Assembly: GCF_007097395.1 (NCBI RefSeq)
Contig: NZ_VKDC01000020.1
Location: 42,753-106,752 of the forward strand
Length of the DNA: 64,000 bases
Direction: 5' to 3'
From: Fulvivirga sp. M361
GTDB lineage: Bacteria; Bacteroidota; Bacteroidia; Cytophagales; Cyclobacteriaceae
The notes beneath the pieces are model-generated. The model did not search any database and was not told where the DNA came from. It saw only the letters and a list, made by a program, of their open reading frames with translations. Shown here piece by piece: positions 11,192 to 16,988 of this stretch. Each line of letters starts with the position of its first letter. Within the stretch, counting starts at the first letter, position 1. The translations under genes and the position numbers were made by a program.

Positions 11192-13624
11192 ATGTGGACT
11201 AAACTCTCCCATATAATTATAAAAAACCGTCTGTTACTCGTCTTACTACTGGCGGGGATCACTGCATTCATGGGCTATAAAGCTCAGGACGTGGAGATGA
11301 GCTTTAACTTCAGCAGTACCGTACCTACGGATGACCCTGATATGGTCGTTTTCCAGGCTTTCAAAGAACTTTTTGGAGAAGATGGTAATCTTATGGCCAT
11401 TGGGTTAAAGGATAGCAGTGTTTACACGAAAGAGAAATTTGACCAACTCAGGGAGCTTAGCCTACGCATTAGCGAAATAAAAGGGGTAAATAATGTCCTT
11501 TCTCTCCCACTGATCAAAAGGTTAAAAAAAGATACGGTAGAAGGTAAGTTTGTGTTTGAACCCGTTTTTACGTCCACCCCCTCGACAAAGCAAGAATTTG
11601 ATAGTCTATTACAGGTAGCGCTGGACCAGCGGTTTTACACAGGTCGCCTGGTCAATGAAAATAATGGAGCTACCGTTTTACTCATTTTTATCAATAAGAA
11701 AGTACTTAATTCGGTAGATCGACTTCGTCTTACGCAAGACATCCAGGATGTAGGGGCAGTCTTTGAGGAAGCCATGCAAATTAAGCTGCATTATGCGGGA
11801 TTACCTTTTGTAAGGTCAGTAGTTTCCGGTGGAGTAAAAAAAGAAATGCAGATATTCCTGATTCTTTCTGTAGTAGTGACTGGTCTGATACTTTTTCTGT
11901 TCTTCCGTACCTGGGATGCTGTGGTATTCCCACTTACCATTATTGGTGTAGTAGTGGTATGGGTGTTGGGCTCACTGGTATTATTTGGATACAAAATAAC
12001 GCTACTTACAGGGCTGATACCTCCGGTGATTGTAGTTATAGGTATTCCTAACAGTGTTTATCTGCTCAATAAATACCATCAGGAGTTTGAAAGCCATGGT
12101 AACAAAATGATGGCGATCAGCAGAGTGGTAAGGAAGATCGGGTTGGTAACTCTGATCACTAATTTCACCACAGCTATAGGCTTTCTCGTACTTGCTACCA
12201 CAGATATCGTAATCCTTAAAGAGTTTGGTATCATAGCAGGTATTAATATCATGGCCACTTTTGTAGTGAGTATTGTACTCATACCGGCTGTTTTTTCATG
12301 GCTGCCATCACCAGGTGGTCAACAATTGAAACACCTGCGCTTCAAAATACTTGATACAGCGCTTACCTGGATGGACTTACTCGTACACAGGCACCGTATT
12401 TTCATTTATACCTTTACGGGTCTGTTAATAGCGATATCCGTCATCGGTATGTACAAGATTGAAACAGTAGCCTACATGGTGGATGATATCCCGGCCGATA
12501 GTGATGTTAAAAAGGACCTGGATTTTTTTGAGGACCATTTTAGCGGGATCATGCCATTGGAGATCGTAGTAGATACTGACAAAAGGAGAGGTGCCATAGA
12601 TGTAAAAAACCTGAGAAAACTCGATCAATTTGAAAAGTTTTTGACAGAACAAAGAGATATCTCTGAACCGGTTTCCCTGGTGAGTTTTGTCAAAGCTGCC
12701 AGGCAGGCCTATTATGGGAATAATCCCGAAAGGTATCAGATACCTAATAAGCGAGAGAGTAATTTTATCCTCCGTTATATGAGAAATCAGACGGACAGTT
12801 CTGGGCTGTTCAATTCTTTTGTTGACTCCACCATGCAGAAGATGCGTCTTTCCATGCAAGTGGCCGATGTAGGTTCTCACAAAATGGATTCACTTATTAA
12901 CCAGGTGATTCAACCCAAAATTGATACATTATTTGGAGAAAGTAATCTTTCATTGAGTATTACCGGTACTACGCCACTATTTGTAAAGGGGAATAAATTC
13001 TTAATAGAAAACCTTCAATTTAGCCTTTTACTCGCTTTTATTATTATTTCTGTCATCATGTCAGTGCTGTTTGCAAATTTCAGAATGATCGTGATCTCAC
13101 TGGTTCCTAATATAATTCCACTCATTATTACTGCAGGTATCATGGGATTTGCCGGAATTCACCTCAAACCCAGTACTGCACTCATTTTCAGCATAGTATT
13201 TGGGATCTCTGTGGATGACTCAATCCATTTTCTGGCGAAATACCGCCAGGAACTCTTTGCCAACCGTTTTTTTGTGCCTTTGGCAGTAAGCAAGAGTTTG
13301 CGAGAGACCGGTGCAAGTATGATGTATACATCTATCATACTTTTTGCTGGCTTTGTGATCTTTGCCGGCTCAAGTTTTGGCGGTACGGTGGCGCTGGGAA
13401 TTTTGACTTCCATTACACTGTTAATAGCCATGATCACTAACCTGATCTTATTGCCATCACTATTAATGACATTTGATGATGGCAAGCGCCGGGAAGACAT
13501 GCACCCATTGATCGAACATTATGACGATGGTTTTTATATAGAGGATGAAGATGAGGAGATAGATCTTACGCAAATTCGCGTGGCACCTGATCCGGAAGAT
13601 GTAACCGGTGAAGTTAATTCATAA
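11192..13624 (+). CDS. RND superfamily exporter (MMPL type)
   Basis: 810 residues of predicted inner-membrane transporter. One N-terminal helix (about 13-30) is followed by a large periplasmic domain (about 35-215) and a block of five or more helices (about 220-380). A second copy of the pattern follows: a helix near 410, a periplasmic domain and helices from about 610 to 780. This is the duplicated RND layout without partner genes for a membrane-fusion protein or outer-membrane channel, so it fits the MMPL/hopanoid-exporter-like branch. GISVDDSIHFL (about residues 672-682) is the conserved acidic proton-relay region. The C-terminus is a strongly acidic tail. The substrate is unknown; lipids are the usual cargo of this branch. 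Confidence 0.88.
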   Translation: MWTKLSHIIIKNRLLLVLLLAGITAFMGYKAQDVEMSFNFSSTVPTDDPDMVVFQAFKELFGEDGNLMAIGLKDSSVYTKEKFDQLRELSLRISEIKGVNNVLSLPLIKRLKKDTVEGKFVFEPVFTSTPSTKQEFDSLLQVALDQRFYTGRLVNENNGATVLLIFINKKVLNSVDRLRLTQDIQDVGAVFEEAMQIKLHYAGLPFVRSVVSGGVKKEMQIFLILSVVVTGLILFLFFRTWDAVVFPLTIIGVVVVWVLGSLVLFGYKITLLTGLIPPVIVVIGIPNSVYLLNKYHQEFESHGNKMMAISRVVRKIGLVTLITNFTTAIGFLVLATTDIVILKEFGIIAGINIMATFVVSIVLIPAVFSWLPSPGGQQLKHLRFKILDTALTWMDLLVHRHRIFIYTFTGLLIAISVIGMYKIETVAYMVDDIPADSDVKKDLDFFEDHFSGIMPLEIVVDTDKRRGAIDVKNLRKLDQFEKFLTEQRDISEPVSLVSFVKAARQAYYGNNPERYQIPNKRESNFILRYMRNQTDSSGLFNSFVDSTMQKMRLSMQVADVGSHKMDSLINQVIQPKIDTLFGESNLSLSITGTTPLFVKGNKFLIENLQFSLLLAFIIISVIMSVLFANFRMIVISLVPNIIPLIITAGIMGFAGIHLKPSTALIFSIVFGISVDDSIHFLAKYRQELFANRFFVPLAVSKSLRETGASMMYTSIILFAGFVIFAGSSFGGTVALGILTSITLLIAMITNLILLPSLLMTFDDGKRREDMHPLIEHYDDGFYIEDEDEEIDLTQIRVAPDPEDVTGEVNS

Positions 13625-13688: not shown

Positions 13689-16600
13689 ATGAAATACAAA
13701 GAGTACAAAGGGCTCAATTACGCAGAGGTAGCTAAGAACGTGCTTAGTTTTTGGGAGGAACATAAGATTTTTGAAAAGTCAGTAGATACAAGGGAAGGAC
13801 AACCAACCTTCACTTTTTATGAAGGGCCTCCGTCGGCTAACGGTACCCCGGGTATTCATCATGTAATGGCCCGTGCAGTCAAAGATATTTTTTGCAGGTA
13901 TAAAACACTCAAAGGCTTCCAGGTAAAAAGGAAAGGCGGATGGGATACCCATGGCCTGCCTGTGGAGCTTCAGGTAGAAAAAGAACTCGGTATTACCAAA
14001 GAAGATATAGGGGAAAAGATCTCGGTAGAAGAGTATAATCAAAGATGTCGGGAAACGGTAATGAAATTTAAGGACCAGTGGGATGACCTTACCTTGAAGA
14101 TGGGATATTGGGTAGACCTGGATGATCCTTATGTGACCTTTGACCGTGATTATGTAGAGTCGTTATGGCAACTGTTAAAGCAGCTCTTTGATAAGGGTTT
14201 ATTATATAAAGGGTATACGATACAACCCTATTCGCCTGCGGCAGGTACCGGGTTAAGTTCTCATGAACTTAACCAGCCAGGCACTTATCATGATGTGAAA
14301 GACACTACTATCACGGCCCAGTTCAAGAGAAAAGATAGTACCAACGAGTTTTTCCTGGCCTGGACCACTACACCCTGGACGTTGGCAGGAAACAGTGCAT
14401 TAGCTGTTGGAGAGAAGATAGATTACGTCAGAGTAAAAACATTTAATGCATATACATTTGAGGAGATCCGGGTGATCCTTGCGAAAGACAGACTGGGTTC
14501 TTACTTCAATGAAAAATCTGCTAAAGCCAATTTTACAGAATACAAAGAAGGCGATAAGATCATCCCTTATCAGGTAATTGATGAAATAAAAGGGGCAGAT
14601 CTGGTAGGGGTCGAATATGAACAATTACTGCCCTATGTAAAACCGGATGGCCCGGCCTTTAAGGTGATTCCCGGTGATTTTGTCAGTACTGAGGATGGCA
14701 CAGGTATTGTGCATATTTCGCCCACTTTTGGTGCCGATGACCAGCGCGTTGCTCAACAGGCAGGTATTGTTCCTATCCTGGTAAAAGATGAGGAGGGCAA
14801 TGATATGCCTATTGTTGACAAGCAGGGCAGGTATGTGAAAGAGATCACAGACTTTGCCGGGATGTATGTGAAAAACGAATACTACGCGAGTGAGGATGCT
14901 CCTGAAAAGTCACTGGATGTACTAATAGCCATTAAGCTCAAAGAGGAAAACCGGGCCTTTAAAGTCGAAAAATATGAACACTCGTATCCACACTGCTGGA
15001 GAACGGACAAGCCTATACTTTATTATCCTTTGGATTCGTGGTTCATCAAAACTACAGCTCTGAAAGATAGACTAGTGGAGTTGAATAATACCATTAACTG
15101 GAAACCTGGCTCGACTGGCACCGGTCGTTTTGGCAACTGGCTGGAAAACCTGGTGGACTGGAACCTTTCCCGTTCACGTTTTTGGGGCACTCCATTGCCT
15201 ATATGGGTGTCAGAAGATGGGAGTGAGCTGAAATGTGTTGGTTCTTTGAAGGAACTTAATGATGAAGTGCAACTGTCTATTGAAGCTGGCTTTATGATGG
15301 AGCCACTACCCAAGGATTTTGACCTTCATCGACCATTTGTAGATGATGTCGTGTTGGTGAGTGCCACAGGTAAGAAAATGTACCGTGAGCCGGATCTGGT
15401 AGATGTTTGGTTTGATTCCGGGGCTATGCCTTATGCCCAGTGGCATTATCCTTTCGAGAATAAAGACATATTTGAATCAAACTTCCCGGCTGATTTTATA
15501 GCGGAAGGCGTGGATCAAACCAGAGGTTGGTTTTTTACACTCCATGCCCTGGGCGTTATGTTACATGATAGTGTGGCATTCAAAAATGTAATTGCCAACG
15601 GGCTGGTACTGGATAAGAACGGGAATAAGATGTCCAAGCGACTGGGCAATGCGGTGGACCCTTTTAAAACCCTGGCTAAGCACGGTCCGGATGCCACACG
15701 TTGGTATATGATATCCAATGCTAACCCCTGGGACAACCTCAAATTTAATGTTGACGGTATTGTAGAGGTACAGCGCCGGTTTTTTGGAACATTACATAAT
15801 ACCTATTCTTTCTTTGCCCTGTATGCTAACCTGGATGGGTTCGATTATTCCGGGGAAAACATAGCTATGGCCAAAAGAACAGAAAGTGACCGATGGATAC
15901 TTTCTAAATTAAATACTGTGGTAGAAAAAGTAGGAACGGCCTTTGAAGACTATGAACCTACCCGAGCAGCCCGATTGATACAAGACTTTACCATCGATGA
16001 TCTTAGCAACTGGTATGTACGTTTGAACAGAAAACGTTTCTGGAAGGGAGAATACAATGAAGATAAAGAAGCTGCCTACCAGACCTTGTATACCTGTTTG
16101 ATGACTATTGCCAAGTTAAGTTCACCGATAGCGCCTTTTTATACGGACCAGCTTTATCATGACCTGAATACTGTGACAAACCTAGAAGAACAGGTGTCTG
16201 TTCATTTAACAGATTTTCCTGAACCCGATCGTGCTATTATTGATCAGGAGTTAGAGGAGCGGATGGCTTCGGCACAAAATATTTCATCATTAGTGCATTC
16301 ACTTCGCAAAAAACATATGATCAAAGTACGTCAGCCATTATCAAAGATTTTGGTACCTGTACTTAATGATCATTTTAAAGCCCAGGTAGAAGCGGTGGAA
16401 GACCTGATCCTGTCTGAGGTAAATATCAAGCAAATAGAATTTGTGGATGATCAATCTGGTGTATTGGTAAAAAACATTAAGCCTAACTTTCGTAAGCTGG
16501 GACAGCAGTACGGGCCTAAGTTAAAGGAAATAACGTCCGTCATCAATACGTTTAGTGAAGACCAGATAGCCATTTTGGAGAAAGAAGAAAAACTTGCTAT

Positions 16601-16988
16601 ACAGATCGCTTCGGGAGAGATAGTACTAACCCTTGAAGACGTCGAGGTAACCTATCAGGACATTCCCGGTTGGTCGGTTGCTTCAGAAGGAAGGCTTACG
16701 GTGGCATTGGACGTAACTATTTCTGAAGAGCTGAAGAAAGAAGGGATAGCCCGTGATCTGGTAAACAGGGTGCAAAACATGCGTAAAGATATGGGGCTGG
16801 AGGTACAAGATCGTATCACGATCAACATCGAAAAAAATACAGAACTCGTTAACGCCGCATTAAAGGCAAATAAGGAATATATTTGTCAGGAAACCCAGGC
16901 CCTTTCCCTGGAAATACCGGACCAGCTCGCGGACGGTATTCTTCTGGAAATGGATGAGCATAAATTGAAAGTAAAGATAGAAGCCTAG
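13689..16988 (+). CDS. ileS: Isoleucyl-tRNA synthetase, type 2, with GIHH signature
   Basis: Class I synthetase charging tRNA-Ile, 1099 residues. This is the long eukaryal-like IleRS2 form rather than the roughly 940-residue type 1. In the signature segment NGTPGIHHVMAR the catalytic HxGH is replaced by GIHH (residues 55-58): first and third positions are exchanged relative to the HYGH of yeast IleRS. The second signature is canonical KMSKR (647-651). An editing (CP1) domain is present between the two, with AWTTTPWTLAGN. The C-terminal anticodon region contains DLSNWYVRLNRKRFW. Type 2 enzymes are associated with mupirocin tolerance, and a GxHH swap has been described in hyper-resistant IleRS2 enzymes. 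It is followed six bases later by lspA. Confidence 0.97.
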   Translation: MKYKEYKGLNYAEVAKNVLSFWEEHKIFEKSVDTREGQPTFTFYEGPPSANGTPGIHHVMARAVKDIFCRYKTLKGFQVKRKGGWDTHGLPVELQVEKELGITKEDIGEKISVEEYNQRCRETVMKFKDQWDDLTLKMGYWVDLDDPYVTFDRDYVESLWQLLKQLFDKGLLYKGYTIQPYSPAAGTGLSSHELNQPGTYHDVKDTTITAQFKRKDSTNEFFLAWTTTPWTLAGNSALAVGEKIDYVRVKTFNAYTFEEIRVILAKDRLGSYFNEKSAKANFTEYKEGDKIIPYQVIDEIKGADLVGVEYEQLLPYVKPDGPAFKVIPGDFVSTEDGTGIVHISPTFGADDQRVAQQAGIVPILVKDEEGNDMPIVDKQGRYVKEITDFAGMYVKNEYYASEDAPEKSLDVLIAIKLKEENRAFKVEKYEHSYPHCWRTDKPILYYPLDSWFIKTTALKDRLVELNNTINWKPGSTGTGRFGNWLENLVDWNLSRSRFWGTPLPIWVSEDGSELKCVGSLKELNDEVQLSIEAGFMMEPLPKDFDLHRPFVDDVVLVSATGKKMYREPDLVDVWFDSGAMPYAQWHYPFENKDIFESNFPADFIAEGVDQTRGWFFTLHALGVMLHDSVAFKNVIANGLVLDKNGNKMSKRLGNAVDPFKTLAKHGPDATRWYMISNANPWDNLKFNVDGIVEVQRRFFGTLHNTYSFFALYANLDGFDYSGENIAMAKRTESDRWILSKLNTVVEKVGTAFEDYEPTRAARLIQDFTIDDLSNWYVRLNRKRFWKGEYNEDKEAAYQTLYTCLMTIAKLSSPIAPFYTDQLYHDLNTVTNLEEQVSVHLTDFPEPDRAIIDQELEERMASAQNISSLVHSLRKKHMIKVRQPLSKILVPVLNDHFKAQVEAVEDLILSEVNIKQIEFVDDQSGVLVKNIKPNFRKLGQQYGPKLKEITSVINTFSEDQIAILEKEEKLAIQIASGEIVLTLEDVEVTYQDIPGWSVASEGRLTVALDVTISEELKKEGIARDLVNRVQNMRKDMGLEVQDRITINIEKNTELVNAALKANKEYICQETQALSLEIPDQLADGILLEMDEHKLKVKIEA

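What the first reader, a model, noticed from the sequence alone, without database searches (positions are those of the whole stretch)
13851..13862. IleRS with GIHH in place of the HxGH catalytic signature
Seen: the segment NGTPGIHHVMAR has Gly-Ile-His-His (residues 55-58) where class I synthetases have HxGH; yeast IleRS has GTPHYGH. The first and third positions are exchanged, while KMSKR (647-651) is normal. Known: eukaryal-like IleRS2 tolerates mupirocin, and a GxHH swap in IleRS2 has been reported to give very high resistance. Inference: this organism is naturally highly mupirocin-resistant.
Basis: partly seen in the sequence, partly recalled or inferred. Interest (0 to 1): 0.75.

Follow-up and report, generated by a model that had tools for sequence, protein, structure and literature searches.

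The report
Isoleucyl-tRNA synthetase with swapped HIGH motif
This looks like a normal essential isoleucine-tRNA enzyme whose key catalytic motif is written GIHH instead of HIGH, a variant already shown in other bacteria to make the enzyme almost immune to the antibiotic mupirocin and found here in every relative read from the same phylum.

Summary
In detail: ileS (13689-16988, +) encodes a 1099-aa IleRS with Gly-Ile-His-His at residues 55-58 (13851-13862), no HxGH anywhere and a normal KMSKR at 647-651. It aligns without gap to HVGH of solved type 2 enzymes and to GVHH of an engineered one. The swap is known: Brkic et al. 2023 (PMC10485003) named it G/AXHH, found it in 86 of 163 IleRS2 and linked it to mupirocin Ki up to the mM range. 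So resistance of the enzyme is a good prediction; nothing was measured for this enzyme or organism. It is no peculiarity of this organism: it is the genome's only ileS, beside lspA, and all 103 distinct motif stretches read from its phylum are GxHH; 194 of 238 phylum genomes were confirmed by pattern or reading, 44 were not read. Modest additions: one single clade of all swapped enzymes is not rejected (AU p 0.535), against the published 'at least twice'; a bulky residue 57 goes with Ala/Ser at 61 (a lead, not significant on the tree); a third state, HxAH, occurs in Neomarinimicrobiota. Real, essentially explained, low interest.

The parts
13689..16988 (+). ileS, type 2 isoleucyl-tRNA synthetase, 1099 aa; the only ileS found in the genome
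   Evidence: ORF; TIGR00392 979.3 bits over cut-off 621.4; one match over the cut-off in the own genome, the next (ValRS) at 226.6 bits
13851..13862 (+). GIHH (residues 55-58), class I signature with positions 1 and 3 exchanged
   Evidence: alignment to HVGH and GVHH chains
13869..13871 (+). Ala61, four residues after His57; Ala or Ser in 162 of 166 GxHH stretches read
   Evidence: its role is inference
15444..15458 (+). HYPFE (586-590), motif named as distinguishing eukaryotic and eukaryote-like IleRS
   Evidence: motif from PMC4861432 section 21
15627..15641 (+). KMSKR (647-651), second class I signature, normal
16398..16982 (+). C-terminal DUF5915 domain (residues 904-1098)
   Evidence: Pfam PF19302, 190 bits
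16994..17644 (+). lspA, lipoprotein signal peptidase, 5 bases after ileS (context)
   Evidence: Pfam PF01252; lspA downstream on the same strand in 40 of 55 relatives' loci with short flanks
11192..13624 (+). MMPL/RND-type transporter upstream (context; no evidence that it belongs to the feature)
   Evidence: Pfam PF03176; upstream on the same strand in 14 of 14 same-genus loci and 21 of 55 loci in all

Best explanation
The gene is the organism's single housekeeping isoleucyl-tRNA synthetase, of type 2, carrying the known G/AXHH form of the class I signature. His57 most likely does the transition-state work of the usual first His and, being bulky where Gly normally sits, would clash with mupirocin, so the enzyme should have a very high Ki for it. 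The motif is an old, vertically kept trait of the phylum (Bacteroidota in the wide sense), not a recent or acquired resistance. Shown here: the motif, the enzyme type, the sole copy, conservation in all phylum members read. Inferred from the 2023 study of other enzymes: catalysis by the third His, and hyper-resistance.
For: Motif and alignment. Type 2: the best PDB chains, 864.9 to 773.7 bits, are those of 8c8u/v/w, 8c9d and 1ile; chains of 917-921 aa taken to be type 1 (8c9e, 8c9f, 1ffy, 8wnf, 8wni; labels recalled) score 323.4 to 240.7; HYPFE present and no NKIL-like stretch after the motif, unlike the IleRS1 L222. Sole ileS. Phylum: 103 of 103 distinct stretches; 168 of 238 genomes by a GxHH pattern with no control hit, plus 26 pattern-negative genomes read directly, all GxHH (4, 22), 44 unread. 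Tree: 46 rows (Bacteroidota, Ignavibacteriota and one Acidobacteriota) form one branch, SH-aLRT 100, all GxHH (quick method). Mechanism and Ki from PMC10485003: natural ALHH enzyme Ki 6.6 mM, change to HVGH lowers it 823-fold.
Against: I found no biochemical datum on this enzyme or on any Bacteroidota IleRS (searches, open library only). Engineered GVHH enzymes reached Ki of only 35 and 460 uM against 6.6 mM for the natural ALHH enzyme, so the motif alone does not fix the level. 44 of 238 phylum genomes were not read.
Confidence: 0.94

Rival explanations
1. A horizontally acquired resistance copy, like MupA/MupB, alongside or replacing a sensitive enzyme.
For: MupA and MupB models match at 803.9 and 796.2 bits, as would be expected of any type 2 enzyme.
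Against: Far under their curated cut-offs of 1900; sole ileS; ileS-lspA order shared with 40 of 55 relatives' loci; the gene groups with the phylum's own enzymes.
Confidence: 0.02
2. A catalytically dead or moonlighting paralogue; the motif is degenerate, not swapped.
For: The first His is the key catalytic residue in other class I enzymes (PMC10485003).
Against: No other IleRS over the cut-off in the genome; the motif shows no decay in 103 of 103 stretches of the phylum; natural and engineered G/AXHH enzymes are active.
Confidence: 0.01
3. The swap is real and functional but was not selected by mupirocin; resistance is a by-product of an old change (drift through a tolerated state, or another ligand). 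This rivals the cause, not the identity.
For: Found throughout the phylum as read and in other deep groups; one single clade of all swapped enzymes is not rejected (AU p 0.535), which would date it deep.
Against: No direct evidence on selection either way; the 2023 authors favour antibiotic selection.
Confidence: 0.4

Closest known systems
G/AXHH type 2 IleRS (Deinococcus radiodurans ALHH, Streptomyces griseus; Brkic et al. 2023, PMC10485003)
   Same: type 2 IleRS, small residue first, His third and fourth
   Different: another phylum; Gly-Ile in place of Ala-Leu of D. radiodurans; no kinetics
Engineered GVHH Priestia megaterium IleRS2 (8c8w: read as this from its GVHH sequence and the paper; the output names no organism)
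   Same: best PDB match; the same swap at the same columns
   Different: engineered from a natural HVGH enzyme; Gly at the column of Ala61
Thermus thermophilus IleRS2 (1ile; organism recalled)
   Same: type 2, 773.7 bits, Ala at the column of residue 61
   Different: canonical HVGH, which the 2023 paper infers to be a reversion in the Deinococcus-Thermus clade
MupA / MupB
   Same: type 2 IleRS tied to mupirocin resistance
   Different: acquired second copies (recalled); this gene scores under half of their cut-offs

Membership tests
Isoleucyl-tRNA synthetase (TIGR00392) | score over the curated cut-off | tested here: met
   979.3 against 621.4 bits
Type 2 (eukaryote-like) IleRS | HYPFE motif; no IleRS1 NKIL signature | tested here: met
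   HYPFE at 586; HHVMARAVKD at the motif against GHALNKVLKD in the IleRS1 L222; features from PMC4861432 section 21
Type 2 (eukaryote-like) IleRS | closer to type 2 than to type 1 enzymes | tested here: met
   864.9-773.7 bits to type 2 chains, 323.4-240.7 to chains taken to be type 1
G/AXHH hyper-resistant IleRS2 | Gly/Ala at motif position 1 and His at 3 | tested here: met
   GIHH
G/AXHH hyper-resistant IleRS2 | housekeeping activity retained | not testable with these tools
   inferred from being the only ileS
G/AXHH hyper-resistant IleRS2 | very high mupirocin Ki (mM in natural members tested) | not testable with these tools
   needs enzyme kinetics
MupA / MupB | score over the curated exception cut-off | tested here: not met
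   803.9 and 796.2 against 1900 bits

The most novel reading that the evidence does not exclude
The swap arose once, deep in type 2 IleRS, and was inherited by Bacteroidota and several other phyla, so that resistance is a by-product older than any mupirocin selection seen today; the step needed a small residue (Ala/Ser) one helical turn on, at position 61, and Neomarinimicrobiota HxAH enzymes show a further state in which position 3 is enlarged without moving the first His.
Probability: 0.25. Interest if true: 0.45.

Novelty: new member of a known kind. Interest (0 to 1): 0.22.

Why it matters
It extends a recently described exception to one of the most conserved motifs in biology to, as far as read, a whole phylum of Gram-negative bacteria, and implies that their IleRS is a poor target for mupirocin-type drugs whatever the drug's entry. 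It also makes the published inference of repeated origin worth retesting with wider sampling.

Tried and rejected
Looked for a second, sensitive ileS: none over the cut-off. Looked for phylum members without the type 2 enzyme: G016 and G202 gave no IleRS match, but neither has any IleRS over the cut-off, and G202 has a GxHH stretch at bases 35-60 of a contig, so there at least it is an assembly gap; for G016 a gap is the likely but untested reading.

A strict first pattern (NG[TA]P[GA]xHH) gave only 22 of 392 genomes: its choice at the third residue was too narrow, as reading showed, and one of the 22 (L048) was a chance match outside ileS. The second pattern missed 70 of 238 genomes, many of them of one family with PGVHH[VL]FSR; 26 of the 70 were read and all are GxHH, 44 were not. 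For the 168 hits the pattern alone was relied on; not each was checked to lie in ileS. A pattern for HxGH was not run on the phylum.

Plasmid records with an IleRS match: 201. Six were opened, three of them Bacteroidota; the two of these with wide flanks (Riemerella, Parabacteroides) are ileS-dksA-lspA housekeeping stretches, not mobile resistance. A second GxHH stretch in G141 is a truncated frame on a 5.6-kb contig; the second in G244 was not looked at.

Residue 61: over 96 rows, position 57 other than Gly goes with A/S in 69 of 71, and Gly57 with A/S in 5 of 25; but the tree offers only 2 independent pairs on supported branches (6 on all), and the sign test cannot reach significance. Canonical enzymes with Ala61 exist (1ile; 6 of 22 distinct HxGH stretches of the Neomarinimicrobiota draw), so it is at most permissive. 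The trees' outgroups are very long branches and the searches were the quick ones.

Full report
Observation. The ORF 13689-16988 (+) encodes 1099 aa. Codons at 13851-13862 give G55 I56 H57 H58. The protein holds no H-x-G-H and a single G-x-H-H; KMSKR is at 647-651 and HYPFE at 586-590. In HMMER alignments to solved structures the stretch lies, without gap, opposite HVGH of 8c8u and 1ile and opposite GVHH of 8c8w. The 8c8 chains are taken to be the Priestia megaterium IleRS2 structures of the 2023 paper and 1ile the Thermus enzyme; the output names no organism.

What it is. TIGR00392 at 979.3 bits (cut-off 621.4), Pfam tRNA-synt_1, Anticodon_1 and a C-terminal DUF5915. It is type 2: 864.9 to 773.7 bits to the five nearest chains, against 323.4 to 240.7 for chains taken to be type 1. 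It has HYPFE and lacks an NKIL-like stretch, features given in PMC4861432 section 21; an IleRS1 fetched for comparison reads HMGHALNKVLKD (L222). It is the only ileS over the cut-off in a genome rated 97.55% complete; the next match is ValRS, whose own motif is a normal HMGH. It is followed after 5 bases by lspA, which lies downstream of ileS in 40 of 55 relatives' loci with short flanks. This is a housekeeping locus.

What is known. PMC10485003 (outline, abstract, passages, sections 6 and 11 seen) describes exactly this: in its tree 86 IleRS2 have G/AXHH and 77 HXGH, and no IleRS1 has it. The natural ALHH enzyme of D. radiodurans has a mupirocin Ki of 6.6 mM; changing it to HVGH lowers Ki 823-fold; canonical type 2 enzymes given GVHH rise to 35 and 460 uM. 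In the structures the third His takes the place of the first, and a modelled clash of it with mupirocin explains resistance. Words beginning 'bacteroid' do not occur in the main texts of that paper or of PMC4861432; a library search for Bacteroidetes with IleRS2 found no paper ('Bacteroidota' was not searched). Figures and supplements could not be read, so I do not claim that the distribution is unpublished.

How widespread. The window's genome is placed among Bacteroidota by the tree (named neighbours Lentimicrobium, Sediminibacterium, Terrimonas, Alistipes). In 238 genomes of its phylum, 237 have a relative at E <= 1e-60. A GxHH pattern hits 168 of 238, with no hit of the control pattern. 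Of the 70 missed, 26 were read directly (4, 22) and all have GxHH; 44 were not read. Over the session 103 distinct motif stretches of the phylum were read, all GxHH. Outside it, a scan of named genomes with a query that does not contain the motif returned 80 loci, 77 of which hold the motif region: 29 GxHH and 48 HxGH. GxHH: Bacteroidota, Ignavibacteriota, Cloacimonadota, Caldisericota, Anaerolineaceae and Thermoflexus, a Solirubrobacteraceae, an Acidobacteria MAG, a Poribacteria MAG, and Bacillota such as Romboutsia, Urinicoccus and Mogibacterium. HxGH: Lachnospiraceae, Oscillospiraceae, Paenibacillus, Gottfriedia and others, two archaeal MAGs, a Neomarinimicrobiota MAG. In 60 Actinomycetota genomes 59 matched at E <= 1e-70 (45 strongly; 14 weakly, at the level and length of IleRS1, not read); of the 30 loci given, 29 are GxHH and one GVHN. 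In 50 Neomarinimicrobiota 46 matched; of the 30 loci given, 23 are HxGH and 7 HFAH.

History. With the motif columns left out, 46 rows of Bacteroidota, Ignavibacteriota and one Acidobacteriota form one branch (SH-aLRT 100), all GxHH (92 rows). Four changes between first-position Gly and His are the least that the quick trees need. The published study infers at least two gains. Holding all 64 swapped rows together gave a tree 3.3 log units better than the free quick search, AU p 0.535. So one origin is not rejected by these data; it is not shown either, and Deinococcus and eukaryotes are not in the set.

A neighbour residue. Residue 61, four after His57 and so about one helical turn on (the motif sits at the tip of helix alpha1 per PMC10485003; the contact is inference), is Ala or Ser in 162 of 166 GxHH stretches (3 Gly, 1 Pro) and Ala in 7 of 7 HxAH, but Thr 42, Pro 18, Gly 6, Ala 6, Asn 1 in 73 HxGH stretches, the Asn being the IleRS1; the one GxHN has Pro. 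The two canonical enzymes that accepted the swap in the 2023 study have Gly and Ala there. This suggests that a small residue is needed beside a bulky third position, but relatedness leaves only 2 independent comparisons on supported branches, so it is a lead.

Organism-level resistance. One Bacteroidota strain, Maribacter halichondriae Hal144, is reported resistant to a 200-unit mupirocin disc (PMC10942906, passages seen); its ileS was not read here. A culture study predicted more Bacteroidaceae diversity with mupirocin in media (PMC13085705, passages seen). Both fit but are confounded by outer membrane and efflux. Two genome papers on Bacteroidota list mupirocin among predicted resistances: PMC10835994 under isoleucyl-tRNA synthetase, PMC5714932 without naming the gene in the passage (passages seen); neither passage mentions the motif. 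Passages of PMC6994654 were seen and not used.

Verdict. The finding is true and correctly recognised, and is already explained at the level of the motif. As far as read it is a phylum trait, not a strain trait.

Noticed in passing
L269, L271, L273, L277, L278, L280, L288 (Neomarinimicrobiota draw): Type 2 IleRS with HFAH: the third motif residue is Ala, a state not named in the parts of the two IleRS papers seen here; each of the seven genomes had one match. They stand in two groups on the quick tree, though supported branches do not force more than one change. One library search for HXAH or HFAH with aminoacyl-tRNA synthetase found no paper holding either word.
   Followed up: partly
L266 (Actinomycetota draw, G467:C83): Type 2 IleRS with GVHN: the fourth motif His is Asn besides the swap; open frame of 1088 aa.
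   Followed up: no
L297 (G027:C10) and L298 (G019:C82): IleRS of two same-order relatives have open frames of 1269 and 1227 aa, with a long extra stretch between RSRYWGTPLPIW and the DLHRP stretch, around window residues 524-565.
   Followed up: partly
window 11192-13624: An MMPL/RND-type transporter gene lies directly upstream of ileS in 14 of 14 same-genus loci and 21 of 55 loci in all; no known link to ileS.
   Followed up: partly
plasmid records NZ_CP072187.1 (L103) and NZ_OY725767.1 (L104): Records labelled plasmids hold ileS-dksA-lspA housekeeping stretches of Bacteroidota; possibly chromosome pieces labelled as plasmids.
   Followed up: no
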